Positions 1 to 30,287 of a DNA stretch of 64,000 nucleotides are shown piece by piece. A program made the position numbers and the translations under genes. Positions within the stretch are counted from its first letter, which is position 1, and each line of letters starts with the position of its first letter. Source of the stretch: Selaginella tamariscina (taxonomy: Eukaryota; Streptophyta; Lycopodiopsida; Selaginellales; Selaginellaceae); contig PUQB01000011.1 in the NCBI GenBank assembly GCA_003024785.1, forward strand, positions 186,001-250,000. Reading direction: 5' to 3'. Under the pieces are notes generated by a model, which ran no database searches, was not told the DNA's origin, and saw only the letters and a program-made list of their open reading frames with translations.

Positions 1-2816
1 AGACATTTTTGTTGGAGTCCGAACCATACGTCCTTCGAAAGGTGGAATTGTTGTAGATCCAGCTCCACGTGGTGGCGATGGTGTTTTGTCCTTCTGACCC
101 TCATCTACTCTTCCTGCCATCCCCTGTAAACCTTCCAGAACAAAGCCTGCATCCTGTAGTTCTCTGACCTCCTCACTTGTCATCTTCGTTTCCTTGAGCA
201 CAGGCCAAACCGTTGGTGGTGTTGGAAACGTGACCGAAGAATTTTGCCGTTTGGCCGTGTGAAACACCCTGAATTTTTGGGCAGAACCACATCATCTGTT
301 GTACATACTCCTCATTCCCCAAGGCATCAATGTACATTCGTTTTCCATAGAATCCTGGTGCTGGCACTCTGCTTGGATAACCGATTGGTTTTCCACACAG
401 AGCAGTTCCTTCTTGATTCATCCCCAAACACTTAACCTTACTGGATGCTCCGATTCGTCTGATGGCCCACTCTGTTTGAGCAATCTCTCTCTCCAAAACC
501 TCTTCGAACCTTAACCTCTTTCTCCTGTTGTTTTGGACCACCCGCTCTGTGTACTCTACATTATGTCTGTGTGAACGTCGAGCATCAGACTGTTCTGTTC
601 CTGTGACTGTTCTCCTAACAGTTTGCACTCGAACGTTAGTGGTACACGTGAACTCCGGGCTGGTCAAGTGTTCCTCGCCTTCCACCAGATTAATAATTGT
701 TGATGGAGATACACTTTTCCCCTCAGAGAGTTTGCGTTGCACTCGTTTCAACAGAGTTTCCTTCGAAGGCCCTGACCCTGTATACCTCCCTTCTATTGCC
801 GCTTTCACCTTCGCACTCTGCATAACTGCATCGGTGAGGTCTAACATTGTCGCCTCCAGTAGTGATACTCTTTTGGCCAATCTTGCTCTTCTTGCTCTAG
901 CGTGAATCACTTCAGCATTGTTTGTAGTTGGAACGCTCGCGAGTCCTTCTTCTGTCATGTCTCCCAGTTCCGCCATGGAGATGTGGTCCTCATGCCTGAT
1001 CCACCAAGACAGCCATGTCTTCAAAGCTCGAATGTTTGACGCTCGTCTTCCCAGAAAGACTCGAGAATTGCCAGTTGTTCTTTCTTAGATTGTTCATTCA
1101 GTGCTGCAGGCCAGGCACGAGCAAGCTTCATGTGTTCTTCGCGATGTTCTTCTGCGATCCATTTCTTTGTCACCTGACGCACAGATTGCATAAAGTGAAA
1201 CAGACAGCTTCTTTCCCTCCCTTTCATCTTTGCTCCGTTGTTGAATACTTGGCGCAAGGCTATCCATATCGCTCCAGCCTCATCCGACATGAAACCAGCA
1301 AAGTTGACATTCTCCAAACCCTGCTTCTTACAAACCTCTAGCATTGTGTTCAAGACTTCAGCACTGCACATTATCTTCGCGGCACATATCTTGCGTAAGC
1401 TATAGTCACCATGGATCTGACACTGCAAGAGAGCGTTAGATAACGAAGATTAGAAAGTGTTATGAAGAGTTTTACAACTTACAATGGGTCATAAAGGTGT
1501 ATTCCAATTGTCGCCCAGTCTGGTATGCGGTGCGTGTGGTCCAGAACAACCCATTGATCATGAAGGTCTCCTCCACTTTGACACCTTCTGATGTACTCAA
1601 CTCCTGAACCCGGTCCCTCAACTGTCATTTTGAAGATCAGAGGCTGCTCCTCAGCACTATGCAGTTCCATCCCTGGAACATGTATGACGTGAATGAAAGG
1701 TATTGGCAGCTTTGTCTTCAGCTCCAGAAGACCCTCGTAACCCTCTCTAAAGTGTGTCTCCTTCTGTCTTGATTGTGTAATCCAGTCCCGAGTCCTAAAG
1801 AAAAGGTCACGTCAGTGTGTAGAGATCTAAAAAAAATACCTTCGATGGTTTGTTAGAGGTTCAAGTTTTGAGAGTAAACCAGTGTACGAGACTTCTCCTT
1901 CTTCCTTGAAAAGTTCTTCAAAGATGAGCTCACGCGCGGCTTGAAACTCAATCACTCGTTGATTGGTTCGCGGACTGTTCTTTACCACGTTGTTGACACT
2001 AGATCTGGCTCGCTGAACGTTTGAAGATGACATTGAGGGGCTGACTGGATGCTGATGAACACCTCTGTGAATGAACAACCTTGTAAAAGAAATGTCGTCT
2101 GGCAGAATGTAGTACACATAAGCCGGACAAGTGTGCACCAGCAATGGTCCTCTCCACAATGCTTACATTTTATGCCTATTACTTTGCCTGTCTCAGTTGT
2201 CTTTGCCTTCTCCACAGCACCCTTGAAGTGACATTCATTTGCTTTCTCTCAAAAGCCAAGTAGGGGCAAGTAGGATTGATGCATTGGAGATGTCCGACAC
2301 ATGAACTTCGACTGACTCGCGCCGGAACATGCCAGTGTGTGTGCTCGGGTGTGTCCAATGGTAGCAGCCATCCTTGCGATTCATCCCCGAGTACTTCTCT
2401 GTGCTTTCTGTCTTAGGGGGAAGTTCGAAAATGACATTTCCATTGTATATCTGCGGTAGTTCAGAGACTCGTTTAACTTCAGACGAACCAATGAGATCCT
2501 TCCCTATCCTACATTTGTCTGCTCTTAGAAGACACACCAGCATGGATTCCTCACGCTCCTCTGTCCGCAACCTGAACAACGGGCCCTTTGCCGGGCACAA
2601 TGTGTAAAAGACAAACTGGTTTGATGCATTGCCTTCTGGTAACAACTCCACATCTTCTCCAGAACTCGCAGAAACTGACATCAATTGAACCACATGTATA
2701 CTGAACCAACAAGGAATGTTGAAAGCAATGTGAAGATCATGTTCAAACACAAAAGCATTTCCATCTTCATCGACTGGGAAATCTTTGTCAATGCCTTCAT
2801 AGGTAACTCTGGCCAT
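1..2816 (-). pseudogene. MULE-like transposase, frameshifted, running off the left edge
   Basis: Reads leftward from ATG at 2816 (MARVTYEGIDKDF). A Cys/His-rich part near 2280-2050 (CKHCGEDHC, then CPAYVYYILP and RLFIHRGVHQHPV) resembles the WRKY/GCM/FLYWCH-type fingers of MULE transposases. The core has WVVLDHTHRIPDWA (about 1530), GFMSDEAGAIW (about 1290) and CLFHFMQSV (about 1200), matching the MULE layout of a first Asp, a second Asp and a CxxH motif. The C-terminal part has TTNNAEVIHARARRARL and a second Cys cluster (CLGMNQEGTALCG). Two introns look real: about 1797-1840 and 1426-1479, both GT-AG on the minus strand. Reading-frame breaks near 2275, 2245, 2140, 1045 and 250 have no plausible introns, so I call it a pseudogene. 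An open frame (EEVRELQDAGFVLEGL) continues to position 1. The family call rests on motifs only. Confidence 0.65.
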
Positions 2817-2886
2817 GACAACGCAAGGAGAAAGCTCGGTGGTTTAGGAAAGCAAAGCAAAAGATTAAACACACTTTCTCTTACCA

Positions 2887-3290: not shown

Positions 3291-4402
3291 AATGGAGATT
3301 TCTGTGCCGATTTAGATTCTCGGCACCATCCTGCTCAGCCGGCGGCCACAAGGTATGTGTAATTTCTGTATTTTATGATTTGCTGCTCAATGTATTTCTT
3401 TTTCCAGAGATATAGGGTCTTCTTATTTGTGCCGACTGAGAGCAACGGCACCATCCTGGTTCAGTCGGCAAACACAAGGTATCGTCGATTTATTTATTTT
3501 TTTCCTTGCGGCTCAAGTATACGTGTCACAATGTTTTTTTTCAGAGTTAATGGGTCTTTCCATTTGTGCCGACTGAGAGTGACGGCACCATCCTGGTTCA
3601 GTCGGCAAAAACAAGGTATTTTCGATTTGTTTTTTTTTGCTTTCTGGCTCAAGTATTCGTATCACAAGGTTTTTTTTCAGAGTTAATGGGTCTTCCCATT
3701 TGTGCCGACTGAGAGTGACGGCACCATCCTAGTTCAGTCGGCAGCCACAAGGTATGTTCGATATATTTATTTTTTGCTTTCTGGATCATGTATTCGTATT
3801 ACATTGTTTTTTTTCAGAGTTAATGTGTCTTCTCATTTGTGCCGACTGAGAGTGACGGCACCATCCTTCTTCAGTCGGCAGCCACAAGGTATGTTCGATA
3901 TATTTATTTTTTGCTTTCTGGATCAGTATTCGTATACATTGTTTTTTTTCAGAGTTAATGTGTCTTCTCATTTGTGCCGACTGAGAGTGACGGCACCATC
4001 CTTCTTCAGTCGGCAGCCACAAGGTATTTTGAATTTGTTTATATTTTGCTCTGCGGCTCAAGTATCCGTATAACAATGTTTTTTTTCAGAGTTATAGTGT
4101 CTTCCCATTTGTGCCGACTGAGAGTGACGGCACCATCCTTCTTCAGTCGGCAGCCACAAGGTATTTTGAATTAGTTTTTTTTTTCTTTGCGTCTCAAGTA
4201 TTTCTTTTAAAACAGTTAATGGGTCTTCCCATTTGTGCCGTCTGAGAGGGACGGCACCATCCTATCTCAGTCGGCACCATTATCTCTTCTGTGCCGTCTG
4301 ACAGAGTCGGCATAAACTATCTCAGTCGGCAGGTTTTTTCTTCTACATCTCTCTGCCGACTGAGAGGGTCGGCAGCATCTAGCTTGAGTCGGCAGCCACA
4401 AG
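3291..4402 (+). repeat. Tandem array of exon-like hairpin units in the 5' leader
   Basis: Six units are exactly 71 nt: 3408-3478, 3545-3615, 3681-3751, 3818-3888, 3953-4023 and 4090-4160, with start spacing 135-137 nt. Each is preceded by a T-run plus CAG and followed by AAG|GTAT, so each looks like a small exon in a short intron. Each holds a 9-bp inverted repeat, GCCGACTGA ... TCAGTCGGC. A degenerate first unit ends at 3352 (AAG|GTATGT). A compound last unit (4216-4402) has several GCCG(A/T)CTGA/CTCAGTCGGC pairs and ends AAG|GTTAGT. Units at 3545, 3681, 3818 and 3953 contain an ATG with an 8-codon frame that stops at the TGA inside GCCGACTGA. The array lies just upstream of the start codon at 4480. 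It may be a 5' leader, transposase-binding subterminal repeats, or both. Confidence 0.8.
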
Positions 4403-4479: not shown

Positions 4480-7400
4480 ATGGTGAGAGCTTCAAAACGT
4501 CTACTAGAGACTGCGCCTGATGAAGAGCCACGGGAAGAGAAGAGGATATCGAAGCAGAAGCGAGGCAAGAGAGGAGAACCATCTAATGTACCAAAGGAGG
4601 ATCCTCCAGTGACTCAGTCTGGAGTAGTAGCAGTTGAGCAAGAACAGCCTCCACCAACAATCACAGATTTCCCGGAGAGCTCGTCGCAGTTGCCTCCTTC
4701 ATCCGCTGAGGTTGCAGTCCTGAACGAGCAAGTGCAGATGACAGAGGCAGCTGAAGCTAGCGAGGACGACTTGGAGGAGGCAGTCAGCAAAAAGAGAGGC
4801 CGCGGGAAAGCTGATTCAAAAGGCAAGAAGGCGAAGAGCGATAAGGAGCCGAAGGAGTTATACAGCATACCGGCGAGCCTGCATTTGGAGAGCTCAGCAA
4901 ACCTGCTCGACAAAATTACTATCAAGGGACTTGGTGATCCTCCTGATGTGCCCATCTGCAGAATACATTCCAACGAGGTGGTTCGACGAGTGAACCCAGG
5001 GGACTTGGACAGGCTGGTGTCATCGTTGAAGAAGGCTGGTTATCTACGCAACACGGCCATGTTCATTCTGTCCATCGGAGATCGACTCACTGCTGAGGAG
5101 CTATCGGAGCTGTCGAAGGACACGATTCAGTACGAGCAGCACCGGTCTTTCGAGCAAGCTCTTACTCAGCCGGAGTACAAACAGTGGGCTTCAAGGCTCT
5201 CAAACAGGAAGTTTAGCTGTTGGGACGGGAACCATAGGCTACAGGCTTTGCAGAAGCTGTACCGAGAGGATGCAGAGGACAACCAGCGATGGGCTATTCG
5301 CGTTCGATCGAGTTTCATCTCCACGGAGAACCTCGACATTCTTCAATTGGTTTCGATGTTCCAATCGATTAACATGTGAGTATTTTCTTTTCTTTTTGTT
5401 AAGAGTTTAGACTTACAGTTTCGTTGAACAGATCTTCAGCAACATCTGTGGAAACAACGCTACCACATATTCTCCTCGCTGTAAAGGCGGTCTGCACTAG
5501 TACAGAAGGAACTCAGAAAATCCTCGAGTCACTCACGGAGGTTGATCGTCTTGAGGTGCGGAAGTGGAAGGAGAGTTCATCAGGAAAGACGGCTTGGCAT
5601 CCTCTTCCGAACCTGATCTGCGCAAAGATACTTTTCAAGGTAACCTCCGATTTAATTTATAGGAAAGAAATTTTTAACTTGTTCTATGTGCAGAACGAGA
5701 TCGACGATGATCTCGACAGAGCAGTCACCAGTGCTAAGGGCAATCCACAGGTTGAGGTGAACCTGAAGCAGCTAGTATACAAGAAGCATGACAAGCGTAT
5801 GCACAAGTTCCTCTCCATCATAGACCCAGACTTGGGGGAGGAGTGGTTCCAGAAGGTGACAAACATCTCTCATAAGCAGTGTCGCTGGATGGGCATTGAG
5901 AAGCTGTATGCGATGTCAAGGGCGAAGATTCCAAACATGCTGCGACTCCGATACCTCAACAAGCTCACCCGTCTCGAATCCAAGGCAGAACAACAGACAC
6001 TTGGGCTACCGGGCATGCAGGACAAAGAGTGGATCAAGTGGTTCACCTTGGACTTATATTGGAAGGCTGTGCGCGAGGAAGCCATTCAGATCCTTAAGGG
6101 GTTGCGAGAGGATGGTGAAGAAGTTGGAACGGATGTCGACTTCATGAGCTGGTTTGACGAGATGAGAATTCGGAGCAAGTGCCTGGTCTTTCAGCCCTTC
6201 CATGACTGCATACGGTTCACTTATTCGATGGAGCCGAATGAGTTTCTGGAGCGTGAGGAATCTGCGCGTCGGATGATATGGAGGTAAGCTTTCAATCCAG
6301 CATTGCTACTGTCTGACTTTGTGTTGCAGGTTCATACTGGCGAAGCAAATGACACCGTCCCATACGATGAAGCTGTGGACAGATCATACAAGCGAGCCTC
6401 ACATGTGGTCGAAGAGCAGAGGAGCTCTAACACCGTTCGAACGGGAGCATGTTCCATTCTGGCTCGACTGTCCGTCGCAACAGCCACCAGCTTGGGAGAG
6501 CACACTATTCGACATGCACGCCAATGATCTACCAGCGATTCTTTGGGAGCCAGAAGAAGTAGAGGCTATCAAGAAGAGCAAGATGAAGAAGACGGTGCGG
6601 AAGACAACTACACCTGCAAAGGGATCGGGAGCGGGACCAAGCTCTTCTACAGCACCTCCGCCAGCATTCGACTTTACAATCAATGAGGTACAGCCACTTG
6701 TAGCTAGTTTGGACATCAAGGACGACCTGATGACCTTCATCCCGACCCTGGCTGCATCCCGTGGATCCTACGACCTAGCTGTGTGCGACATGGAGGAGAT
6801 GAGCAGGTCTTTCTTCGAGCCAGGTGCTTCCCAGACAGAGGTGTACACCAAGCTCCGAGAACAGGTTGACAGACTACATACGGTTGAGTCACAAACGTTG
6901 TTCCAGGAAGTGGTAGGTGAATACGGCTTCAACCTCATCATCCTCGACTTGCCCAATGAGCTTGTATATGGAGGTGCTAGCATCAACAAGGACATTGTGC
7001 AGCTAGATCCGGTGAAGTTTGAGGAGGCCTTGCAGTTCAGTGGAATGCACTTGGCAGCGAGTGGTTTCATGGTCGTCTTCGCGAGTTCTCCTTCTGTTTC
7101 GGCGGTGATTCAGGCGGCTGCAGTAATCAACTTGGAGGTTGCAGGGACTTACAGCGTCTACCGTGCACGAGGCTGGGGATACCGTGACAAAATTAAGGTA
7201 AGCTAGCTATTCAAGTTCAAGTTTAACTTGGTCTATGTGGCAGGATAACTTGTTAGTTCTCTTGGTGCTGCAAAGCTCTGAGAAGAAGTCGAAGAGGCCA
7301 AACCCTCTGGCGTTGACGAACACGATCCTCGTCGACACTGCCGACCGTTATCAGGAGGCTTGGTAAGGAAGTGCTTTGCTATGTTTATCCTAATGGAAGA

Positions 7401-7706
7401 TTGTGCAGGATTATGATTCAACCGAAGAGTGTTCGACTCATGCAGCTTTTGATCGAGCGTCTCAGTAGACCTGGCGACCTAGTCTGGGATATTGGTTCCG
7501 GAACCGGGTCATCATTGTTAGCTGCCGTCGAGCTCGGAAGGAATATTATAGGAACCGAGAAGAGTTTCGAACTCTCTAGGTTGGCAACAAACAAGCTTGC
7601 AGAGAACATTAGACCAGAAGAGTTACCTACTCAAACACCTCCACGTCCAAGCGTAACTGGTGGTTCGAGAACTGCAGCTTTACTTAAGATGAAGAAGAAA
7701 CTTTAG
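4480..7706 (+). CDS. ParB-like domain fused to class-beta DNA-methylase-like domain, 5-6 coding exons
   Basis: Joining 4480-5375, 5432-6283, 6330-7197, 7244-7362 and 7409-7706 gives one open frame with GT-AG junctions. A 54-nt in-frame segment (5640-5693, GTAACC...GTGCAG) is probably another intron, giving about 992 aa (1010 if kept). Residues 1-145 are charged and low-complexity with basic KKRGRGK stretches, probably a nuclear signal. Residues about 158-300 look like a ParB/Srx-type domain with CWDGNHRLQAL at 247-257. The middle part is unrecognised. The C-terminus has an amino-methylase order: motif IV-like ILDLPNELVYGG (D771) before motif I-like VWDIGSGTGSSLL (D921), as in class-beta methylases (PF01555-like). 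DLPN departs from the usual DPPY/F/W, so activity is uncertain. The start at 4480 follows a leader splice acceptor (TTTCCAG, 4463-4469). It diverges from the transposase at 1-2816, and unlike that gene it is intact. Confidence 0.8.
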
Positions 7707-7722
7707 CTAATGTATATTGAGT

Positions 7723-7728
7723 AATAAA
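7723..7728 (+). terminator. Polyadenylation signal AATAAA of the ParB-methylase gene
   Basis: A canonical AATAAA begins 17 nt after the TAG stop at 7704-7706. An A-rich tract follows. Confidence 0.5.
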
Positions 7729-7788
7729 TTAAGCTAATATAAAAAAAAATTAAAAAGAAATACAACAGTTTTAATAGAATTCTTTTTT

Positions 7789-7905
7789 GCCGACTGAGGC
7801 AATACTGCCGACCAGAAAGAATATTCCAAAATATTCTAGAATATTCTTGAATATTCGAGCCCAGGCCTCCTGGGCCCCAAGCCTCCAAAATGGCGACACT
7901 CCTTA
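7789..7905. mobile_element. Probable right end of the ParB-methylase/MULE element
   Basis: GCCGACTGAGGC at 7789-7800, then GCCGACC at 7807-7813, repeat the signature of the 3.3-4.4 kb hairpin array outside the gene. They are followed by the GAATATTC-rich stretch and a GC-rich near-palindrome (about 7859-7875). At 7906 sequence shared with 45.76 kb begins abruptly. The left end lies outside the window, so terminal inverted repeats and target duplication cannot be checked. Confidence 0.4.
7819..7856. promoter_or_regulatory. Phased heat-shock-element-like array
   Basis: Starting at 7819 at 5-nt spacing the modules read GAA, TTC, (AAA), TTC, GAA, TTC, GAA, TTC. Seven of eight slots fit the alternating nGAAn/nTTCn heat-shock factor consensus, and the last five (7834-7856) are perfect and contiguous. 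Function is not shown by the sequence; AT-rich DNA can give partial matches by chance. Confidence 0.45.
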
Positions 7906-8225: not shown

Positions 8226-8237
8226 TGCATGTGTGTA

Positions 8238-8296
<59 letters not shown>

Positions 8297-11099
8297 GCAT
8301 GCATGTATGTATGTAAACACACAGACACGCATATTAAGAATATGCAAACTTACTAGAGTCCTTAACTTCTTCGATGAGATCGTTAGCGAGATGTAGCCCT
8401 TGAAAATTAGCAAAGCCAGGAATAATTCGCTCTATGAGTCCCTCGAAGTTGCTTACACCCGTCTGACTATCTTCGAAACTCTGATAAAACCAAAATAAGT
8501 AGCTTCTTCCCCCCCTGTGTGTGTGTATAGTATAAGTACGTACTGAATGCAGCATGTGCTTACCATTTGTTGGCCAACCAATACCTCTATAACACCAGTA
8601 GCACCCTTCACAACGAAAAAAACGCAAGAAAAATTAGAATCTCTTTCTATCTAATGTTGTGTATGTGTGTGTATGTATTTTGGTGTGTGTTATGACATTT
8701 ATTTATGTATGTAGTATGTGCTTACCATTAATTGTTGGTTAAGCAGTACCTCCAAAGTCTTCACAAAAGCAAACAAAGTAAGAAAAGACAAAATTAGAGA
8801 TTATATACTTACTGGATATGTAGTATTACACGAAAATTTAATGTAAGTGTACTAAAGACCTTATTAAAAATATGTATAAACACTAGTGTATATAGTGTAT
8901 ATAAATGTACACCCACGAGTATATACATGTGTATGTTTATATATATCCAGATAGAGCTAGGTAAAATTGGTTTACATCATGGTATTATAAACACAATAAT
9001 CATATATAACATATGATTTATCATATGTATACAAGATATAAATACAGGTGTCATAACACATATACTCCCACACATATACCTTAGGGAAATTTCTTCGAAT
9101 AGCAATGGCAGGATACACTGAAGAATATCCCAGGTGAGCGATATCCTGGTCAAAATGATTCATATGGATATCGTTATAATCATAATACTCTCGATGCTTA
9201 TATACAGTATTTTTATACTACTATCTGTGTAATATATATCTAAAATAATATACATTGTATGCTGTCAAAACACACACACACACACACAATGTACACCTCA
9301 GGATGCTCAGCCGTGTTTTGAAGCTGATTGGCTTCGGTCAGTGTCAAGTTGCTTAATTTATCCTCAGAGATATCTCTGGCAACAGGAGATAGCCCATTCT
9401 CTTCCACATCTGCAAAGTCATTAGTACATAGGGATATCCTTACAATAATTAGGATATATTAGTTTATTTTACTATTACGTGTAATTTTAATTATAACTTA
9501 TGAACAAAGTTAATATGCTAACCTTCCACTGCCTCTATCTCCAAATCACCCTCCACTTCATCCTCTATCATAGAAACCACCTGAAATTAGAGAGTCAATT
9601 AGTGCTCTATATGTCTGAACATAATATAATTGGCTTTCTGAGTTTACTACAAACACACATCGCCCCCTCCACACACATACACACAAGCACATCATCAAAA
9701 AGATAAACCTGTTCCTACATTTCTATAATAATATCTTCAGGAATAATGAATTTAATAAACAAATGAAAGTCCAGCAATAGCAGTACTTACATTTTCTGCA
9801 GGCACCTCCTCAGATTCAACTCCATGTTCAACGCTTTTAACCACATCTTGTTCATTCTGTAGATAAAATGTATATTAAGCACGCTCGCGCACACACACAC
9901 TCAAAAACACTAATGCAAGCATATACATAATATAACATGTATATAAATGTATATTGTAAAGGTGTAAATATACCATATACAAAGATGTGTTAATGCGTAT
10001 ACATTTATGTGTACTTACATATACACCATATCAAAGTAAAATATATTATCTATAATACTATTATGCAAACAAAGTGTGTGTATGCATGCATATATGTGTT
10101 TTTACTTACCATAGTTGCACCATTGGGACGATTATCCACATCAACTGAAATGCTATGTTTAAACTACAAAACAAAAATAATCAGCAGATAAATAGATAGA
10201 TAGATAGATAGATAGAGATAGATAAATAGATAAATATTGATACAATGAGTACAGTTACGATCGTAAGTTAAATGATGATGCATAAACACATAACTATTTC
10301 TAAACTCTTACCTCTGGTTCGTAGTTTTCAACTGCTCCAGGTATACGTGTGAATCTGAAAAAGATATAGCATGGGTTTAGAGAGAAAGAGAAAAGGAGAG
10401 AGTAAGTACATAGAATATATTAGACACAAGCTGAAATCCAGGGAAAATTTAAAAAACCACGAGCTTAATCCTGATTGCCAACTGCAATAACACAAAGACA
10501 CTGCCTGCACAAGTTCACAATAAATGTCTTACAATTCATATTATATGTTATTTGTGTACATGATTATGACCTGGGTGCAGATTACAATAGATTTCCTTGT
10601 ATCAACAGTAAGTTTTAGACAAGCTTATATGTTAATTAGAGATACATAGAAAGGTAGATTCAATTGTCTGTACGATATTATCTACATGATATAAATAAAA
10701 CCTTTAAATTAAATATATATATATATAGGTTGGGTAACTTAGGTTGATGAAAGAAACAAATATTTATAAATATGCATATGGGTACCTTCTGTCCCAGCGT
10801 GTTTGACATAAAATCAAAAAGGAAAATGGTAGCACACATGAGCAAGTTGTTCTTGACGACGACCTTAGCAGCTTCATACAGGTGCAAGATGTTCTTGACG
10901 ACGACCTTAGCAACTTCGTACAGGTGCACATTTGCAGACAAGGGCCATAGAGAATCTTGGTCGTCCTGGTCAGTATTGGCTGCTTCTTCCTTGCTGAGTA
11001 CAAAAAATGGGCCAAGCACGAGAAATGAAGGCAAAAATGGGATTCAAAAACTTTCTTACCTTCTACATGCTTCTTCTTATGTCATCCCGCCTTCCCCAT
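7906..11099 (-). pseudogene. Truncated copy of the unknown 15-exon gene at 42662-46704
   Basis: Minus-strand copy of exons 1-12 of the gene at 42662, with the same splice borders. Its equivalent of the start ATG (11097-11099) is followed after four codons by TGA, and the copy stops at 7906, at the exon 12 donor, so exons 13-15 are missing. Exon 12 has an extra GGA codon (AATGGAGGACTTAGC) against the right copy. The middle of exon 2 is in a different frame from the right copy because of two indels. The product is unknown in either copy. Confidence 0.65.
8147..8305. repeat. (CT)n / (TA)n / ATGCATGCATG microsatellites
   Basis: Two alternating blocks of CT repeats and TA repeats with GCATGCATGT spacers, inside an intron of the truncated gene. 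The right-arm counterpart (45470-45525) has one shorter block, so repeat number has changed since duplication. Long ORFs here are repeat artefacts. Confidence 0.95.
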
Positions 11100-13238
11100 G
11101 TTTCCTTCGGAAATATACATTCAACAAATCATACTTAACTGTAATTAATATGATTACATATATATTTACATATTTATAATAAATCAACTGCCCGCAATTT
11201 CTTCAGTTCTCTACATATAAACTATTTAAATGATTAATATGCGGACAAGATAAATTATTAGATAAAAACAAAATGGAGAAAGGAAAGGAACCTGTATTCT
11301 CAATATGTAATTTAAGTGCCAATATGAAAGATCCAGTATAGACGCATGCAAAATAGCAACTTTCAAACATGCTTCACAAAGTATAATATGCCCAGAACAC
11401 AATATTATGAAATAATCAACGTACTATATTCTGTTTGTATGTGTGTGTGTGTGTGTATGGTGTGTGAGAGAGAAAGAGAGGGAGAGAGGGAGAGGGAGAA
11501 GGAGAAGAGAAAAAGAAAAAGAAAGATAAGAAAAAAGAGAGTAAACCTGAAATATGTCTGAGGGATTTCTTTGACTGGCGCATGGTGATTGTTGTGTTAT
11601 AGGCCCACGTGATAGATGCTAGTGTTACAAGTTTGAAAGGTTTTTTGGAATTTCAGAGTGGCGCTTACCCTAGGTTCACTGCAATATATATGGTTCAAGG
11701 AAAAATGTATCCACGTGCCCTTGCATTAATTAGACGCGGTATTTTCTCAACCGTTGATTACTTCAATCCAAGCTATTTATTTTTTAACTTTTACCTCATT
11801 ATACTGGCATGTGTTGCCAGATAGATTAGGATCAATTTTAATATATTTAATTGTATTTTTTATTAATTATAATCCATTTTTAGATATTGATTATTTTAGG
11901 TTCAATTAATATAACATATAATAATAAATTTTTGAATTACACGTTTTAAAAATAAGATTTAATGTATATTATTATTTTTTATATTATACAACTTCTGTGA
12001 TGTATACACTTTGTTTTTTGAGCTCTCCTTATTTGCGTATCTACTGTATACATGTGTGTGTATATAGTGTATGCATATAATATATATATAATTAAGTTTA
12101 ACATTTGTATAATTGTGAGTTATTTGTAAAATATTTGTAAACTAATTATTCAGCACATATATATATTTAATTAATATCATTCTCAAAGATTGTTAAGCAA
12201 AACTTAGTTTTAACAAATAAATTAATGATCGAAAATGAATATTTTTTTTGATTTAAAATACATATTGTAAGTGTGTGTTAGTTTATGATATTTAAATTGC
12301 TAGTTCATGATATTTAACATTAACGAGTGTGAATTCTAATAGCCCAACAATTTAATTTATATATAGATGGAAAACTTAATTTTGTAAAAGTTAAAATCTG
12401 ACAACAACGATAAAATATATCTTAACACTAAAGTTAATGTTAATTTTAAGTTTTAATCAAGAATTCATAATAATAAATTTAAAGTATTTTAGTAATATCT
12501 AATCAATATTGATGATTTAATAAAGCTTTAGAATGTTACATGGTTAAGTGTACATTTTAATTAGAGTGATTAAACTTCATTTTAGTTTTAAACTTTGTTT
12601 AAAGTTTTAAATGTAAAATAATTAAAATTAGTAAAGGGGAAAGATGAAATATAGAATAGTTAGTAATATTCTATGTTTAAAGTAAAAAGGTTATGTTTAT
12701 ATGGCTTCATTATAATATGTAAGTTATAACTAAAATGGAATGTTTATAACTTCATTTCTTAATAATTAGCATTAGTTATTTAATTAGTATTTTTTAATAT
12801 TAAATGAATATTTTTTAGAATAATATATGTTTAAAAGAAAGAATATTCTTTAGAATATATGTTTGAAGATAGAATATTCTATTTTTGTAATTAACCCTTT
12901 AATAAATTCATGGACCAAAATTAATAACATTTAAAAATAGAAGGTATTAAGTTATATAATATATTATATTTAAGATTGTATGAGCTTAATATAAAACTTA
13001 AGGAAGAGTATGAAGGTACATTATATAAATATTGATGTTGTTATTAAATATTAATATTTAAATATAATATTAATTAAAAATTTATAGTAATAATAATATA
13101 TATATAATATACAAAATCCTATATAGTCAATCTTTCATATCTTTTTATAAATTTATATAGTTAAGTAAACAATTTAGTATTATTATTAAAGAGTTTATTA
13201 TAATTATCAATATTAAATATACTATATTTTATAATGAA

Positions 13239-13919: not shown

Positions 13920-16900
13920 CTAAATTGGGCATGATACATGAAAATGGAAATATAAAATTAAATATTAATAATAGTTAAGTTTTAATTATTAATTAATTAT
14001 TAAATAAATATATATATAGTCTTAATTAATAATTAATTAATTAATTAATCCTTAATTAACTTTAATTATCAATATATATAATAAACATTACAACCTAAAA
14101 TTCATACATAGAATATTTATATAATAAAATAATTATTATATTCTAGCAAGATATTCATAAAGTAAAGAATATTTCTAAAATATCTTAGAAATATTCAGTG
14201 TAAAAATATTTTACAATAATTTAAAAATATTATCAAACATAATCGAACATAATTACAAATGAAATCATTTCCTTATTAACATGTCAATCTATTTGTAATT
14301 ACTTTCTCATTAACTATACAAAAGAATCTTCTCATTTTGTTTAAGTCATTATCACTTTGATCGATGAAATCATTCTGGTTAATATCTTTATGTTGTTGTC
14401 ACCACCTAACATTCTCACGAATGCAATTAAGAATTGCCATCCTTGTTTGTAGAGTGCACAATTGATTTGCTTTAATTTATAAAACTCAAAATTACAAGAA
14501 AGAAAAGTGCCATGATATACTTTATATGATAGATATTGCTCACAAAAATTTTCAAGATTTTTTTTTTTAAGACATGTGTCCAAGTAGTTCACTAACTCAT
14601 TCATGGTATTAATATCAAAATATGGGTCGAAAGTGATTGGATGGATACAAGTAATATTTTGGTTGAGCATAGCCTTTTGAAGAGAGTCATGTACCACTAA
14701 GATATGTGCATTCTTTATTATGCTTAACTAATTGATCTCGCAATAAAACCCAATTATTCTTTCATTCTTGAAGATTTATGATTTGCTTTCCTTTTTAACA
14801 TTGTAGTATTCAAGAGGTTTATAATAATATTTATTGCTAGTCAAAAATCCAATCTTTATGAATCACCTCTTTTGCAATACTTTAGTGCTTGTTGAACAAA
14901 TTCAACAGCAATGTCATGTTATGAAACTGCATGTATAACCAAATCCTCACAAGCGCACCCATCTCCTTCAACTTTTGAAAGAGATGGTCCAACCCTGGAC
15001 AAAAATGATATCATGTTAAACTTTACCATGACAATGAATAAAATTCTCTGTTTGATTTCTCTCTTCAGGTCCTCAGGCCTTTGTCGATGAAATAGAATGC
15101 CATTGACATTTAACAATACAATATGGCCATAGGTAATAAAGGGCAACGTTGCTTTTTAAATGCTTTGCAACTCACTTATTTGGTCCCTTTCACATTCATC
15201 TTTTGATGCTATATTGTTGTCATCTTTTTTATTATTTACTTGTATATCATCCTTACAATATTCAGATATTATAGGCACTGAAGAAAGTGGTTCAGGAACT
15301 GAAGGCAATATAAATGATTATAACTGAAAAAGTTAAAAATGGTGGTTCAAAAACCTCAGTAATAAACTTTTTTTGTAACTTGTCAAGACAAGTGGTCCCC
15401 ATAGTGATGATGTTTTGAATTGCATTGTTGTACATTTCCTGTATGATCTCCGTCATTCTAACATGTGGCACAAGTAATTTTTGCCATACCCCCTCTTACT
15501 TCATGCCCCTATTGAAAATCCTTATTCTCAACTATTTTATTATATATGTAAAATGATTGTTAGTTGGTCTTATAATAACTAAGGTATATTATTTACCTTG
15601 TTAATGTGTGACTTATGTTTGAACTAAAAGCTTCTTTAGTATGTAAGAATTTATTTTCTCTATAAAGATACACAAATTATATAAAAATGCCTTATGTTAC
15701 ACTCATTTACAACTATCCATCACTTTAGCAATTTATTAATAATTCTTCTTTGTTGTTACCTTCTGAGCTAGGTAAAGAAGGTTTTAACCACTTGAAAAAT
15801 TATTCCTTTTTCTTTGTTGATGTTTCCATGATTAGTGAAGTAATTGAATGTTATGTGCTCCTTGAAATAACTTCTAGTGTGATATCTAGTTCAAATCATC
15901 CTCAAATTTTGACATTGGTCAGATTCCTCCTTAAAATTATCGCATTTCCTAGGAGGGAATTTTCCCAAATACTCATGTATGAGTTTGTTGGGATAGTCAA
16001 TTGAGAACCTCTCTATCCACTTGTTTAAGTCTTTGATCATGGTTTTATCATTTTCAATGGTAAACACACATGTATTCCAAAGGTAACACTCCTTCAAGAC
16101 GGAATTGTTAGTGCAGTATTCAAAAAACCCATGCATCACTGTGAGGACTCTTGATTAAGTTGACGATGTTGTGTGCAACTTGACGAGTAATGTTTGGATA
16201 ACATACATTGCCGAATACGTCCTTTTCAGCTATTGATGTATCAGATGAAGATTTAGACTCATTGGAGCAAAGGCAGATGCCTGACCAATTGTTTGGAAGT
16301 TTGAAATTATTTGGCGCATTCCTAACAACCAGGTGAACAACTGTATCAATACACTTAGGATTGGCATTGTTCACATAAAAGCCAATCTAATGATGTTTGT
16401 TCTTCTCAGCGAAGACGAAGGCGAAGGTATCAGTAACATGAACAAAAATCAAGAAATAAATACCTGAAGACGTAGGTATCAAATAAGTGTGCAAAAATTA
16501 AATAATAAATACCTTTTTTATACATGCTTGCACGGCTAAGCTTCTCCACCAAATCTTCTAGCTCTTTATCTGAAGAAGGATTTTTTGATACCTGCCAATC
16601 CATCACGAACATTTGAAAAATTTACTGTAGGTAATGATGTTACCCCATAAAGTCTCCGACTCCGACAACAAATAGCTTCTTCTGATTTGTAATGTCCTCT
16701 TTTATCATGTTCAACTCGGTTCTCTATTAAAAAATTACCATAAGAGAAGGCGTAATCGCAATGTTCTCCTTTTTGGCATTGGCATGCAATAGATTCTTGC
16801 CCAGATTTTTCTGATTGGTTTAACCATTAAACAAACATATCATCATCTGTCACCTGCAAATATTTATTAACCTCCTCATATGCTAGAGCTGAGGTTCAAC

Positions 16901-17945
16901 CCAATTTATGGTAGTGTATTCCCAACCACTCTTTAAAGTGTCTCATCATCTTTAACTCTATTGTCTTAAATGAAAAGGAGAGGTGGGATTGTTGTTATTA
17001 ATCTATAGTTTGCCATCAGCTACCAAATCAACTAACACATCCATCTCCTCCACTGTTATTCCTTTCAGAAGCTTCAACCATGTGAGCTTGAACATCCTTC
17101 ATAGGTTGGTAGACTTAACCTTCGGTGTCTTATTGGGTTTCCTTGCAGATTTCTTCAAGGGCTCCCTTGCATTTGTTTGCTTCTTTTTCAATGTTTCTTT
17201 CACCATGATCCCCACTCATTTGTTGAAGACCTTGTACTCGTGGCAAGAAATCAACATCATCAAGAAGGATGTTCCTTCCTGCCCACCTAGGCAAAATCAA
17301 TTGCAACAATTTTCTTGGCTCTCTGCAAATGGAATAATTAAAAGATTATTATGCTGGCGGATTTTTCTTACCTGGTATTCATGCAGTAGCTCTTTGAGGC
17401 CACCCAAAAGTTACCCACATGGATCGTATGTGTTTGAACTTTTCCTATATTTTGTTGTTGTAGTGGTTAGTAGTGTCTCATTTTGCAAATAGCTTATGGT
17501 ATTGCTTGGTTGTGAGATTTGGCTTAACTAAAAAACTGATTTTATTGTCAACTTCACATGAGTATGCTAAAAAAGTTTTGTTACCATTGTTCCCTTATTG
17601 TATTCACCGAGGAGTCATTGGACTGCCATTATCATGTGTTGGCCATTAATAATGTAATACCTTATTAATTTTTTACCTTCTGCCAATTTGGATCTTCATG
17701 ATTTGGTTTGGTGTTATCACCCACACTATCTCAATACCTTTCTTTCTTTCATAATATAGGCACAAAACAATATTATGTGAGATGGTGTACAAATTGTCAT
17801 TCTTCATTTTCTCCATGAACTCAACGACATGTTCCTGGTTGAGTGGTTTATAATTGAAGTTGGGGTTAACGTTACAATACTTAACCCTACACTTGTAAAT
17901 CTTATCATCTAACATCATTTCTTTATGACATGGGATGTCACTGGT
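13920..17945 (-). pseudogene. ParB/methylase-like/HAD gene, copy 1, decayed
   Basis: Same family as 51280-56394. Recognisable minus-strand blocks: ParB start (about 17918-17815, ECRVKYC, LNQEHVVEFMEKM), methylase-like part (about 16700-15890; DVFGNVCYPNITRQVAHNI then AWVF), HAD start (about 15130-15080, LLNVNGILFHR) and HAD C-terminal part (14697-14341). The first catalytic Asp of the HAD motif (LLDVNG in copy 3) is Asn here. Many stops and frame changes separate the blocks. The 5' end is cut at 17945 by the LTR of a Ty3/gypsy element, so the N-terminal module (seen at 55300-55970) is lost. Confidence 0.7.
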
Positions 17946-22239: not shown

Positions 22240-25200
22240 ACTAAAATGGGCATACTACATGAGAATGGGAATATAAAATAAATTGCTAATTAATACTTAA
22301 ATTTTAATTATTAATTAATTATTTTTTAAATATTTTAAATAAGACTTAAATATTAATTAATTAACAAATTAATCCTTCATTAACCTTACTTAGTAATGAA
22401 TATTTCTAAAATATCTTAGAATATTTATATTATTCTTTGTTATAAAAATAATTTACAATAATTAAAAAATACTATCAAACATAATTACAAATGAAATCAT
22501 TTTTTTATTAACCTGTTAATTTATTTATAAATACTTTCTTCTTAACCATACAAAGAAATCTCCTCATTTTGTATAACTCATCACTCTCCGAATTAATCGA
22601 ATCATTTTGGTCAATATCTTTATGTTGTTGCCACCATTTAACACTTTCACGAATGCAGTTAGGAGTTGTCATCCTTGTTAATACATAAGCTATGATAAGA
22701 ACATGAGTGCATAAAGGCTTTATCTAAAACATGACATTAGAATAACATGACCTTAAGAAACATGACCTTAAGAATAATATTGTAGAGCGTTCAATTGCTC
22801 TTCTTCAATTTATAAAATTTAAAATCACAAGAAAGAAAAGCTTCAAGATATGTTTGATATGGTGTATATTGTCACGACCCAATACAAGATGCAGAATTCT
22901 AGATACAAAATATGGGTTATAGGATATGCCTACAGGATATACCTACAGGAATATCCTGTAGGATATGTTACAGGATATGCCGAGAGGATAAGGGTCACTA
23001 TTCTTAGCTCATGACTAGATTAGACTCATGACCAGATTAGCTTGGAGTTGTGAGCATAAAAGCTCCGACCTAATTATTATACAATCAGTTACTATCAACA
23101 CCAGTCATTCTACTATCATTCTTGTTCTTGTCTTGCTCTTTGCCTCCTGCTCTTATCTTGTTCTTGGTTCTCATCTTGCTCCTGGTTCCTAGTTCCTGTC
23201 CTGCTCCAATTCTTGTCTTGTTCCCTGTTCTGCTCCTGACTCAAGACTTCTTGTCCTCAAAATTCTGCTCTCTTCCTTGACAGATATTACTCACAAAAGT
23301 TTTTAAGATTCTTCTTTCTGAGGCATGTATCCAAGTAGTTCACTAGCTCATTCATGGTATTGATATTAGAATATGGGTCGAAAGTGATTGGATGGATATT
23401 ATAAGCAATATTTTGGTTGAGCATAGCCTTTTGAGGAGAGTCATCTACCACGAAGATATGTGCGTTCTTTATTATCCTTACCTGATTGATCTTCCAATGA
23501 AGCATAATTAATCTTTCATTCTTGAAGAAGTATGGCTTGCTTTTCTTTCTTATATCATAAAATTCGAGAGGTTTATACATATTCGCTGGTCAAAAATTCA
23601 ATCTTTACGAATCACCTCTTCTGCAACACTACAATGTTTCTTAAGCAAATTCAGCAGCGGTGTCAAGTTGTGAATCTGCATGCATGACCAAATCCCCACA
23701 AGTGCACCCATCTCCTTAAGCTTTTGAAAAGACGTGTCCAACCCGGGCAAAAAATGATATCATGTCAAATTTACCATGACAAGGAATGAAATCTCTTGTT
23801 TGATTTCTTTTTTTCTATCCTCGGGCCTTTGTCAGAAGCAAAACACCATTGACATCCAACAACACAATATGACATGGGTAACAAGGGATAGCGTTGCCTC
23901 TCGAATGCTTTGCAACTCACTTGTTTGGTCCCTTTCACATTTATCTGTTGACGCTATATTGTTGCCTATCCCTTTATCATTTACTTGTACATCATCCTTA
24001 CAAGATTCAAATATTACAGGCGCTGAAGAAAGTGATTTAGGAACTTGAAGGCAATAGAAATGATGATGCAAAAACTAAAGTGGTCCCCATGGTAAGGATG
24101 TTTTGAGCTGCATTATTATCTATTTCTGCATGAACTCTGTCATTATGACATGTGGCCTCTCTTACCTCATGCCAATGCTGAAAATCCATGTTCTCAACTG
24201 TTTCATTACATCTGCAAAATGATAATTAGCTGGTTATAATTATCAAGGTATATTATTTACCTTGTTAATTGTGACCATGTTTGAACTAAAAGCTTCTTTA
24301 ATCCTTGAGAATTTATTTTCTGTACAAATATAAACGAAATATACAAAAATGCCTTATGTTACACTCATTTACAACTATTCATCACTCTAACAATTCATTA
24401 ACAATTCTTTGCTGTTACCTTCTGAGTGAGGCAAAGAAGGTTTTAGCCACTTGAAGATCGTTCAACATCTTCCGTATCTTTTGTTGATGTTTCCATGGTC
24501 AATGGAGTAAGTGAATGTGTTATGTTCTGTACTCCTCGAAGTCTAATATCTGGTTCAAGATTGTTCTCAAACTCCGACATTGACCAGATTCTTCATTAAA
24601 GCTATTGCACTTCTCGGGAGGGAACTTTCCCAAATGCTATTGTATGGGTTTGGGGGTAGTCAGTTGAGAACCTCTCTATCCACTTGTTCAAGTCCTCAAC
24701 CATGGTCTTATCCTTTTCAACGGCAATCACACATGTATCCCAAAGGTAACACTTCTTCAAGATGGATCTCCTAGTGTAGTAGTAAAAAACCCATGCATCA
24801 TTGTGAGGACCCTTGATCAAGTTAACAATGCTCTGTGTAGCCTGACTTGTAATGTTTGGATAACGTACATTGCCGAATACGTCCCTCTCAGCTATCGGTG
24901 TATTAGATGGAGGTTCAGGCCCATTGGAGTGCAAACAGATGCATGGCCAGTCATTTGGAAGTTTGAAATTGTTTAGCACATTCCTAATAACCAAGTGAAC
25001 AATCATATCAATGCACTTGGGATTAGCATCGTCATATAAAATCCTATCCAACGATGTTTATTCTTCTTGGCAAAGACAATGGCAAAAGTATCGGTGACAT
25101 GAGCAAGAATCAAGAAATAAATACCTGAAAACGTAGGTATCAGTTAAGAGTGCAAAAATTCAATAATAAATACCTTCTTTGTACATGCTTGCACGGCTAA

Positions 25201-27640
25201 GTTTCTCCACCAAATCCTTTAGTGCACTATTTGGCAAAGGATTTTTGACACTCGCCGATCCATCACAAACATTTAAAATGGTTTCCTGCAAGCAATGATG
25301 TTACCCCATAAAGTCTTCGAATCCGACAATAAACATCTGTAGGGCTTGTCGTGATTCGTAACATCCTTCTTTATAAGGTTCAACTCGGTTCTCCGCTGCT
25401 GAAGGACTGCCATAAGAGAAGGCGTTGGCGTGCAATAGATTCTTCTCATTGGTTCACCCATTGGACAAGCATATCATCATCTGTCACATGCAAATATTTG
25501 CTGACATCTTCTTATGCTGAAGCTAAGGTCCAACCTAGTTTGTGACAGTGTATTCCCAACCACTCCTTGAAGTGCCTGATGGTCTTCAGCTCCATTGCCT
25601 TGAGATGAAAAGGAGAGGTGGGACTGTTGTTGTTATCTATAGTTTGTTATCAACCACCAAATCAGCTAAGACATTCATCTTCTCTATCATTGTTCCATTT
25701 AAAGGCTTCAACCATGTGATGAGCTTAAAATCGTTGTTTACATCCTTTATAAATTAAACAGACTTAGCCTTTGCTGTCTTACTGGGTTTCTTTGCAGACT
25801 TCTCCGAGGGCTCCCTTTCACTTGTCTATTTCTTCTTCAGTGTTCCTTTTATAAACGATTCCATAATCCTCACCCATTTAGCAAAGACCTTATCCTTGAG
25901 GAAAGAAATCATTATCAAAAAAGATGTTTCCTTTCCGCCCACCTGGGCAAAATCAACTGCTGCTATTTCTTTAGTTCTCTGAAAATAAAAAAGAGATAGA
26001 TTAATATATTGGCGAGATAAATTCTGCCAAGACAATTTACTTACCTGGTATTTCGCATATTGTTATCTCCTTGCAATAGCTCTTTGTGGCTGCCCAAGAT
26101 TTTCCCACATGGATTGCGTGTGTTTGAACTTCTCCCATATTTTATTGTTGTAGTGGTTGGTGTCAACAACGTCCCATTCTGCCGATAGCTTATGGTACTG
26201 TTCGATTGTGAAATTTGACTTAGCTAAAAATGCCGATTTTTTTGTCAACTTCTCATGGGTATGCTCAGAAAGTTTTGTTGCCATTGTTCCTTTATTATGT
26301 TCATTGAGAAGTTGTTGGGCTGCCGTTATCGTGTGCTAACCGTTAATAATGTAATACCTGATTGATTTTTTATTCTTCGTCTGGAACTTTGTGATTTGTT
26401 CTAGTGTTGTCACCCACATTATCTTAGTGCCTTTCTTTCTTTTATAGTATGGGCATAAAACAGCATTATGTGGAACGGTGTAAGAATTGTCATCCTTCAT
26501 CTTCTCCATGAGCTCAGTTACATATTCCTAGTTGAGTGACTTATAATTGAAGTTTGAGTTAACGCTGCAATACTTAACCCTACACTTGTAAATCTTATCA
26601 TTCAACATCATTTCCTTGTGGCTTATTGCAGCATAAAATGCCACATGTGCAGCTGACAAAACGTAAAATGATTTCTTTTGCGATCAAAATCAACATGTGT
26701 GAGCCTTGACTGCAACTATTTTAATGTTCTCAACACACTCTTTCAGCTCTCGAAGATTCCTAAACAAATTATGTGATCTGTAAAGAACCTGGGACTGAGC
26801 CACCCTCTCAATCTCCCTAATGATGTTGTTGTGTTCTTCTTCAATAAGAAGAGGGACGATTGCTTCACTTGTGGATGTTCTATATTGTGAAGCAATACTG
26901 CTGAGAATACACCTACTCGATGAGTATGGAGATCTTCAAAGTAGACATTTAATTAGATCCCATCCATAAATGGGCTTTCATTTAGTTAAAAAAAACTCCA
27001 TGGTCGACATGGCCTCTTAGAAAGGTGACGGGATTAATCCCACCACCAGAAGTGGCCGGATTAATCCGACAATGAACACATGAACATCATTATCCACAAG
27101 TCAACAGAACCACCCGAGGTTCTTGTTGTATTTGGCAACCTCTGGATCCGAGAACGTGACATTGGATGGAACAAGGCATATATGTCAAACATCATTCTAT
27201 TTGGGTTTGCAGCTTGCCCTCGGGTGCTTGATTAATGAATCTAGTTTTCATTGTTTTGTTTGTCCATGCGATGTGACAGATGTTAGTTTGACAGCAACCA
27301 TGGTTGATTCAATGCGCTTCCCGTTTATTTTGAAATATGGCCAAGTTGATTCCAGAATCCCCTACCCATGTCATCTCCTCCTTTTGTCTTCAATGTCACC
27401 TCAATTCCACATTTAAATATAAAAATGATTAGTTCTTCAAGCACATATCCGAGTATAACAGATTTTATTTTAATTCTTACCCAAAATTTAACGATGACTC
27501 CATACTAATGACTAAATCTCCTTGTTTGATCAAACCGTCTTTCTGCACAATAATACACTATAAATACAATTCATATAAAATCGCACACACACTTGTATAA
27601 ACCCAAATATACAAAATTAATATACTGATAAATTCACATA
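22240..27640 (-). pseudogene. ParB/methylase-like/HAD gene, copy 2, decayed
   Basis: Second direct copy. Minus-strand blocks: N-terminal module (27415-26960), ParB start (about 26610-26500), SAEWDVVDTNHYNNKIWEKF (about 26200-26100), the linker around 26035-25540, methylase-like motif IV region (about 25340-25290, YRCLLSDSKTLWGN), motif I-like AWVFYYYTRRSILKECYLWD (about 24795-24740) followed by VIAVEKDKTMVEDLNKW, HAD start LLDVNGVLL (about 23860) and VVDDSPQKAMLNQNI (about 23440). A solo LTR at 22870-23282 splits the HAD end, and a 60-bp palindrome-bearing insertion sits at 27011-27070. Motif I is more eroded than in copy 3. Confidence 0.7.
22870..23282 (+). mobile_element. Solo LTR of the 36.4 kb gypsy family inserted in copy 2
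   Basis: TGTCACGACCCAATACAAGATGC ... TTCCTTGACA matches the LTR at 36423-36871, including the CCTACAGGATATTCC repeat block. Flanks are TATAT (22865-22869) and GATAT (23283-23287). The uninterrupted copy 3 reads GGTGGATAC here, so this looks like a 5-bp target duplication with one later substitution. Confidence 0.8.
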
Positions 27641-29445: not shown

Positions 29446-30227
29446 TCATTATATTGTCATAATTTTAAATTTGTGTGTGTGTGTGTGTATGGGTGTATCA
29501 TATACACCTTAAAAATATAAATCATGCCGGGGTTTAACATATGTGTTTATGAGAGTGTTAAATTTTCACGTGCAACAATACATATATACACATATAATAT
29601 ACACATAAACATACATACATAGTACATAATATTGTCACATTAGTACATATTATAAATCATGCATGGTGTGTATGTATGAGAGAAGAGAGAGAGTGTTAAA
29701 AAAATAATTTTGTACACATTACATATATTAGTACATATATACATACACACGTGTATACATGCAGACATACATACATATTACATGTGTAAATTCAATGTGT
29801 TATATACACACAAACTGAGTACATATGGATCATACATGCATAATATGATGTTTTCGATAAAGAAACAACATATCTCTCCAGTTTGGTTTAGGGTTTAAAC
29901 CCAATGCAAGTATTTTATTATTAAATTTATTATTTATATAAAAGTCTATTATTCATATAAAATACATAAGAAAACACACATAAAGAATTGTTGATAGTCA
30001 AGATAAACATAAAATCACAAATCATTTTATTGATTTGTCAATTAATTTTAAAAACTTTATTTTTAAAAATGCAAATTATAATTTGCTTATACTTTAAAAT
30101 TGTATGTATATATTTGAATTTTACCCAATTTTAACTTCAAATAACATAATGATATTAAAACACATTTGAAAGCAATCATAGCATATAATATATATATTAG
30201 TATAAAATCTTTATACTAATATAAACT
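29446..30227. other. AT-rich spacer without visible gene
   Basis: TG and TA microsatellite runs (about 29470-29490, 29580-29630, 29730-29790) in AT-rich DNA. I see no supported coding region. Confidence 0.6.
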
Positions 30228-30287
30228 AAATCCATGCACATTTATCTAATTATTTAATATAAATTTACTCTAAACACTAAACATATG

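What the first reader, a model, noticed from the sequence alone, without database searches (positions are those of the whole stretch)
4480..7706. Intact ParB-DNA methylase fusion gene carried by a eukaryotic DNA transposon
An open 5-6 exon gene joins a ParB/Srx-like domain (CWDGNHRLQAL) to a class-beta methylase-like domain (DLPN box before DIGSGTGS). ParB-methylase fusions are known to me from phages and plasmids; finding one spliced, nuclear-looking and divergent from a MULE-like transposase is unexpected. A plausible role is marking or recognising the element's own DNA, for silencing escape or transposition control. The DLPN box leaves catalysis open.
Basis: partly seen in the sequence, partly recalled or inferred. 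Interest (0 to 1): 0.88.

Follow-up and report, generated by a model that had tools for sequence, protein, structure and literature searches.

The report
ParB-methylase gene in plant-type transposon
A jumping gene in what looks like a plant nuclear genome carries an unbroken gene that fuses a bacterial-type DNA-clamp (ParB) domain to a bacterial-type DNA methylase; such genes have been described in algal jumping genes, so this is a new variant of a known but barely studied kind.

Summary
Window 4480-7706 (+) encodes a 992-residue protein in six exons with five GT-AG introns. Its C-terminal part carries PF01555 (N6_N4_Mtase, E 1.1e-8). A ParB/Srx-like region is supported by a two-block profile test (0 of 1000 shuffles; above 198 control frames) but not by Pfam. 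The only relative found among 7849 scored candidates is Selaginella moellendorffii SELMODRAFT_402005, with the same order of parts. Divergently, a MULE-like transposase gene runs off the window and is broken in at least two places. Between them lie six 71-nt exon-like units with GT/AG flanks, each with the inverted repeat GCCGACTGA-21 nt-TCAGTCGGC; the motif recurs at 7789. The pairing is not unprecedented: PMC12477816 reports a ParB-methyltransferase gene antisense to the transposase of an Ectocarpus Sola1 element and cites algal cases. New here: MULE-like carrier, land-plant relative, hairpin-iteron array, and a non-consensus catalytic box (DLPN; 12 of 12 phage fusions have [DS]PPY). Most likely: a self-recognising accessory protein that binds the iterons and shields the element from silencing, as VANC does. 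Binding, methylation and recurrence beside MULEs are untested.

The parts
4480..5375 (+). exon 1 of the ParB-methylase gene: charged N-terminus and the ParB/Srx-like region
   Evidence: GT-AG model; P0009 matches 4855-5025 at 61%
4996..5061 (+). ParB-like helix block, residues 173-194 (PGDLDRLVSSLKKAGYLRNTAM)
   Evidence: two-block profile test
5212..5286 (+). ParB box II-like block, residues 245-269 (FSCWDGNHRLQAL...)
   Evidence: two-block profile test
5432..5639 (+). exon 2
5694..6283 (+). exon 3, middle region without Pfam match, conserved in Selaginella
   Evidence: P0009 43% at 5715-6170
6330..7197 (+). exon 4, linker and presumed catalytic half of the methylase domain
6928..6969 (+). 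best place for methylase motif IV, residues 765-778 FNLIILDLPNELVY; non-consensus
   Evidence: its score alone is not above shuffles: 114 of 500 reach it
7244..7362 (+). exon 5
7409..7706 (+). exon 6 with the AdoMet-binding half and stop codon
7413..7595 (+). methylase motifs X and I, residues 896-956 (...DIGSGTGSSLLAAVELGRNIIGTEK...)
   Evidence: PF01555 E 1.1e-8; block test 0 of 500 shuffles
3408..4160 (+). six tandem exon-like units of 71 nt, each with a GCCGACTGA/TCAGTCGGC inverted repeat, separated by intron-like spacers that begin GT and end AG
   Evidence: motif 22 matches in the window against 0.86 expected
4216..4402 (+). longer last exon-like unit of the array with further inverted repeats
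7789..7798 (+). copy of the array motif GCCGACTGAG just downstream of the gene
7707..7902 (.). 3' flank of the gene and probable right end of the element; 7903 onward matches another repeat whose second copy (45762) lacks the element
1..2843 (-). divergent MULE-like transposase gene, running off the window; frame breaks near 1036 and near 250, and two further frame changes at 2307-2147 that could be breaks or introns

Best explanation
The gene is an accessory gene of a MULE-like DNA transposon in a plant-type nuclear genome. Shown: it is an intact spliced gene whose product joins a divergent ParB/Srx-like region to the AdoMet-binding half of a permuted (class beta) amino-methylase, and it lies divergent from the transposase across an array of hairpin iterons whose motif is, in this window, almost confined to the element (19 of 22 matches). 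Inferred: the ParB-like region (with the middle domain) binds the GCCGACTGA inverted repeats between the two genes, as plasmid ParB proteins bind clustered sites, and so loads the protein onto its own element. There it either methylates the element or, if the DLPN box is dead, acts as a SAM-binding chromatin protein, keeping the element's promoters out of host silencing. That is what VANC does for VANDAL elements with an unrelated protein.
For: Intact 992-codon spliced frame with coding-type GC3; PF01555. ParB block pair 11.2 bits against shuffle mean -15.3, sd 4.6, max 3.3, 0 of 1000; of 214 frames and proteins held, 15 fusions score 78-119 (12 of them built the profile), the window's exon 1 scores 11.2 and the other 198 at most -5.1. 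Same order of parts in Selaginella P0009. Array motif 22 matches against 0.86 expected; 17 lie in 3334-4364 and one at 7789. The six units and the longer last block keep GT and AG flanks; one unit folds at -24.9 kcal/mol, z -2.8. Published precedents: Sola1-1_Ec32; VANC targets often form tandem repeats, in introns of VANC and VANB and upstream of VANA (PMC5735166, section read).
Against: No Pfam or HMM recognition of ParB; no usable structure model. Motif IV is DLPN and its block score is not above shuffles. The partner transposase is broken in at least two places, so this copy may no longer be a self-sufficient element. Neither transcription, DNA binding nor methylation is shown, and only one copy was seen.
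Confidence: 0.45

Rival explanations
1. The protein is a transposition cofactor, like MURB of maize MuDR: it organises the element's repeats for the transposase and has no role in silencing. The methylase half is a degenerate SAM-binding scaffold.
For: Non-consensus DLPN box; the array motif also sits near the probable right end (7789); mudrB is described as apparently required for integration (PMC6446971, passage).
Against: The AdoMet-binding motif is well kept here and recognisable in Selaginella, which a pure scaffold would not need.
Confidence: 0.2
2. The gene has been domesticated: it is now kept by the host while the transposon around it decays.
For: Two frame breaks in the transposase that no GT-AG intron explains, and two more possible ones, against none in 2.98 kb of this gene. 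A relative is an annotated gene in Selaginella.
Against: Few events: if two breaks fell at random over about 2.5 and 3.0 kb, both would land in the transposase about one time in five (my arithmetic). Pseudogenised transposases beside accessory genes are reported for Ectocarpus giant transposons, read there as mobilisation in trans (PMC12477816). No dN/dS could be computed.
Confidence: 0.15
3. A passenger: a captured gene carried without benefit, as in Pack-MULEs.
For: MULEs frequently take up foreign DNA (PMC6446971, passages).
Against: The fusion is shared with Selaginella at 29-40% identity, and the same pairing is published for other transposons in algae; recurrent capture without function is unlikely.
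Confidence: 0.1
4. Bacterial or phage contamination or a chance frame.
For: ParB-methylase fusions occur in phages: 29 of 50,697 records hold a place covering at least 80% of M.PhiCh1-I; PMC12704722 finds N6_N4 fusions more often in phages than in bacteria (passages).
Against: Five GT-AG introns with exact frame continuity; no relative of the fusion in phages, of its ParB and middle part in plasmids, or by short conserved patterns in 84,980 prokaryote genomes and in IMG/VR; a land-plant relative.
Confidence: 0.01

Closest known systems
ParB-methyltransferase accessory gene of Sola1-1_Ec32, Ectocarpus (PMC12477816)
   Same: 1104-aa protein joining a ParB-like domain to an N4C/N6A methyltransferase; opposite strand to the transposase; accessory gene of a DNA transposon
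   Different: Carrier is Sola1 (21.5 kb), here a MULE-like transposase; brown alga against a relative of a lycophyte protein; sequence similarity could not be tested because that sequence is not held here
M.PhiCh1-I and other phage ParB-N6_N4 fusions
   Same: ParB part N-terminal, permuted amino-methylase C-terminal (Pfam checked on M.PhiCh1-I only)
   Different: 395-480 aa in the 12 translated (one cut by its record's end), no introns, [DS]PPY in 12 of 12; here 992 aa with a long middle region and DLPN
VANC of Arabidopsis VANDAL21 (PMC5735166)
   Same: Accessory gene of a MULE; tandem repeats in introns and upstream of the element's genes
   Different: Unrelated protein (DUF1985/DUF287); causes loss of DNA methylation; no ParB or methylase domain named
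Bdelloid rotifer N4CMT (PMC8885841)
   Same: Permuted N6_N4 (PF01555) methylase of bacterial origin with introns in a eukaryote
   Different: Host gene fused to a chromodomain, SPPY box; that paper states it has no eukaryotic homologs
DNMT-bearing retrotransposons (PMC5890265, abstract seen)
   Same: Transposon encoding its own DNA methyltransferase
   Different: C5-cytosine DNMTs in retrotransposons of dinoflagellates and charophytes

Membership tests
Transposon ParB-methyltransferase accessory proteins (Sola1-1_Ec32 type) | ParB-like domain | tested here: met
   Two-block test 0 of 1000 shuffles and best of 199 non-fusion frames; but Pfam PF02195 and a phage-profile hmmsearch fail, so this is a weak 'met'
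Transposon ParB-methyltransferase accessory proteins (Sola1-1_Ec32 type) | N4C/N6A methyltransferase domain in the same protein | tested here: met
   PF01555 E 1.1e-8, spliced model
Transposon ParB-methyltransferase accessory proteins (Sola1-1_Ec32 type) | Opposite strand to a transposase within one transposon | tested here: inconclusive
   Divergent from a transposase-like gene with shared motif at 7789; left end and terminal repeats lie outside the window
Transposon ParB-methyltransferase accessory proteins (Sola1-1_Ec32 type) | Sequence relatedness to the algal proteins | not testable with these tools
   Algal sequences not held under their names; two searches gave no hit beyond Selaginella
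Active class-beta amino-methyltransferases | AdoMet-binding motif X-I | tested here: met
   0 of 500 shuffles
Active class-beta amino-methyltransferases | Catalytic (D/N/S)PP(Y/F/W) | tested here: not met
   DLPN at the best place; 12 of 12 phage fusions have [DS]PPY
MULE transposons | MULE DDE transposase domain | tested here: inconclusive
MULE transposons | Zinc-finger motif (SWIM, FLYWCH, WRKY/GCM type) | tested here: inconclusive
MULE transposons | 8-11-bp target duplication and terminal inverted repeats | not testable with these tools
   Left end outside the window; the genome search did not complete
VANC anti-silencing proteins | DUF1985/DUF287 protein | tested here: not met
   Only PF01555 found in the Pfam scan
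VANC anti-silencing proteins | Tandem-repeat targets in non-coding parts of the element | tested here: inconclusive
   Tandem iterons present between the genes; binding untested

The most novel reading that the evidence does not exclude
A MULE has turned a bacterial ParB partition-type clamp into a self-targeting chromatin factor: the leader of its own gene is an array of exon-borne parS-like hairpin iterons, read by a ParB-(pseudo)methylase that lost the catalytic box but kept SAM binding. This would be a VANC-like anti-silencing system evolved from unrelated, phage-type parts, and transposons of several lineages (Sola1, MULE-like and those of other algae) would have recruited the same module.
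Probability: 0.18. Interest if true: 0.85.

Novelty: new variant of a known kind. Interest (0 to 1): 0.55.

Why it matters
If ParB-methylase genes recur beside unrelated transposases (Sola1 in a brown alga, MULE-like here), transposons have repeatedly recruited a bacterial DNA-clamp and methylase module. That would make self-recognition and self-marking by eukaryotic transposons testable: the iteron array gives a defined candidate target. It would also put a permuted N6_N4-type methylase domain in the land-plant lineage; PMC8885841 states that the rotifer one has no eukaryotic homologs (passage).

Tried and rejected
Full-length protein search with residues 135-960: no hit at E 0.01 among 7996 scored candidates. 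Scans of viral contigs with the protein, P0003 and alignment A3, and of genome contigs with A3 (two short patterns only): no relative; P0009 brought one short generic methylase match. tblastn in phages: only stretches of the methylase part matched in the 20 of 285 records listed; plasmids, queried with the ParB and middle part only: none. Rfam at gathering thresholds: no match in the window.

Structure: exon 1 region folded alone, pLDDT 33.5, useless. Transposase relatives A2, 8 sequences, pLDDT 44.3. Foldseek gave no match at E 0.001; after three ISCth4 chains the list is mostly tyrosine phosphatases, and in the second look most rows are ubiquitin-like folds over residues 1-90. None of this is used as proof. 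Profile of A2 against PDB sequences: none. One of four regular expressions (second-D block) was too strict and matched no row; I drew nothing from it.

Frame changes in the transposase: I first counted at least four breaks. One search shows GT-AG pairs that could make introns of those at 2307 and 2227-2147, and none at 1036 and 250, so only two are certain; I lowered the domestication rival from 0.2 to 0.15 for that reason.

Considered and dropped: N-terminal extension of the protein through the leader: stops in frame. Origin from a named phage group: no evidence. Identification of the species: not attempted beyond the Selaginella hit. PMC12695648 (terms Selaginella, ParB, PF01555: none) and PMC6431247 (passages) gave nothing used.

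The first exon coordinates tried were off by one or two bases and gave stops; one search corrected them from the splice sites.

Full report
Gene. The reading at 4480-7706 is real. Six exons joined by five GT-AG introns of 56, 54, 46, 46 and 46 nt give 992 residues and a stop. The chance of that run of open codons is about 2e-22 at this composition, third-position GC is 0.582 against 0.359 in introns, and the shifted frames hold 43 and 47 stops.

Methylase half. Pfam N6_N4_Mtase matches residues 898-953 (E 1.1e-8, cut-off passed); the PHROG DNA methyltransferase phrog_67 matches at 1.8e-10; the best solved structure by sequence is MboIIA at E 0.002, or 5.5e-4 with the C-terminal part alone, followed by other amino-methylases and ribosomal protein L11 methyltransferases. 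Motif order is that of the permuted type, the catalytic half before the AdoMet-binding half. The X-I block is far above shuffles (0 of 500 reach it); the best place for motif IV is FNLIILDLPNELVY, but that block alone is not (114 of 500 reach it), nor is the stretch between (107 of 500). The 12 phage ParB-methylase fusions that I translated all have [DS]PPY. A phage methylase without ParB, gp48 of phiRM10, reads DVPYN at the comparable place (by eye), so the second position can vary, but an N in place of the aromatic residue is unusual. I hold catalysis to be open, leaning to lost or altered.

ParB half. Neither Pfam ParB_N nor an HMM of the phage fusions finds it; for comparison M.PhiCh1-I itself scores only E 5e-5 against ParB_N, below its cut-off. 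A profile of two ungapped blocks from those 12 fusions, allowed up to 90 residues apart, scores 11.2 bits, with the best hit of each block in the right order (residues 173-194 and 245-269). Of 1000 shuffles of the protein none reaches it (mean -15.3, sd 4.6, maximum 3.3); singly, 7 and 14 of 1000 shuffles reach the two blocks' scores. Of 214 frames and proteins held, 15 are phage or halovirus fusions (78-119 bits; 12 of them built the profile), the window's exon 1 is next (11.2) and the other 198, many of them non-coding frames, are at or below -5.1. P0009, whose model lacks this stretch, scores -13.9. The 90-residue limit was set after I had seen the spacing. Reading: a divergent ParB/Srx-like region with an insertion of about 50 residues.

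Relatives. Of 7849 scored candidates out of 5.77 billion clustered proteins, one passes E 1: P0009, SELMODRAFT_402005 of Selaginella moellendorffii (666 aa, E 3.6e-46, 29% identity over 91% of the 442-residue query). It carries the N-terminal region, the middle and a C-terminal methylase stretch (E 8e-4, below cut-off). The annotated model lacks the stretches that would hold ParB box II and motif IV, which I take to be skipped exons. So the fusion is shared with a lycophyte. I do not know the window's species; short introns would suit Selaginella (recalled). No relative of the fusion was found in phages, of its first half in plasmids, or by short patterns in prokaryote genomes and IMG/VR.

Array. 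Between the genes lie six units of 126-137 bp. Each reads as a 71-nt exon-like block, AG...CACAAG, followed by a spacer that begins GT and ends AG; all six keep both, and so does a longer seventh block, 4216-4402. Each 71-nt block holds GCCGACTGA, 21 nt, TCAGTCGGC. GCCGACTGAG with up to one mismatch occurs 22 times in the window against 0.86 expected: 17 in 3334-4364, one at 7789 just past the gene, one at 6233 within it, three elsewhere. One unit folds at -24.9 kcal/mol as RNA, z -2.8, 0 of 200 shuffles as low. Whether this is a spliced 5' leader, a DNA iteron array, or both is not decided here; no transcript data exist in the tools.

Element end. From 7903 the sequence matches, inverted, a repeat at 45762-40717 (93-94%). 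Left of that point the two copies differ. The copy at 45762 looks like an uninterrupted site, so the element's right end is probably 7902; it is also possible that 7903 is simply the edge of that repeat. The left end is outside the window, so terminal repeats and target duplication are untested.

Prior art. PMC12477816 (passages) reports the same pairing in Ectocarpus Sola1-1_Ec32 and cites Iyer 2011 and Petroll 2025 for green and red algae; neither of those two is held here. It also notes that transposase genes are frequently pseudogenised among its giant elements. PMC12704722 (abstract and passages) surveys the ParB-CTPase fold: N6_N4 fusions are more frequent in phages, and the commonest eukaryotic member is sulfiredoxin. 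PMC8885841 (passages) states that the rotifer N6_N4 methylase has no eukaryotic homologs. PMC5735166 (abstract and one section) and PMC10398659 (abstract) describe VANC, whose targets often form tandem repeats in introns and upstream regions of VANDAL genes, the nearest functional parallel. For a MULE with a ParB or PF01555 gene, eight searches of an open-licence library listed no paper that shows one by title or start of abstract; I saw listings only, 20 of 23 papers and 12 of 358.

Verdict. A new variant of a published but, as far as I saw, functionally untested kind. The strongest new points are the MULE-like carrier, the land-plant relative, the hairpin-iteron array and the non-consensus catalytic box.

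Noticed in passing
8232-13012 and 45532-40717: A 4.9-kb stretch repeated in inverted orientation at 94% identity; the transposon discussed appears to be inserted at its edge in one copy.
   Followed up: partly
14462-17927, 23278-27010, 51786-55622: Three diverged copies (77-86% identity) of a region that encodes an NLI-interacting-factor-like phosphatase (PF03031 E 4.3e-8 in 52117-52521, minus strand, the one copy scanned).
   Followed up: no
38119-38811: Three tandem 230-bp units in a reading frame upstream of a Ty3/gypsy-type RNase H frame at 40231-40698 (PF17919 E 5.5e-26).
   Followed up: no
32769-32912, 33186-33316, 56400-56505, 58631-59016: Arrays of 44-45-bp units with a GATTAATC core, a different family from the array near the ParB gene.
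   Followed up: no
30225-31804 and 59306-60173: AT-rich tandem blocks of about 120 and 336 bp shared in inverted orientation at up to 95% identity.
   Followed up: no
5640-5693: Intron 2 (54 nt) is in frame and free of stops, so its retention would keep the protein open.
   Followed up: no
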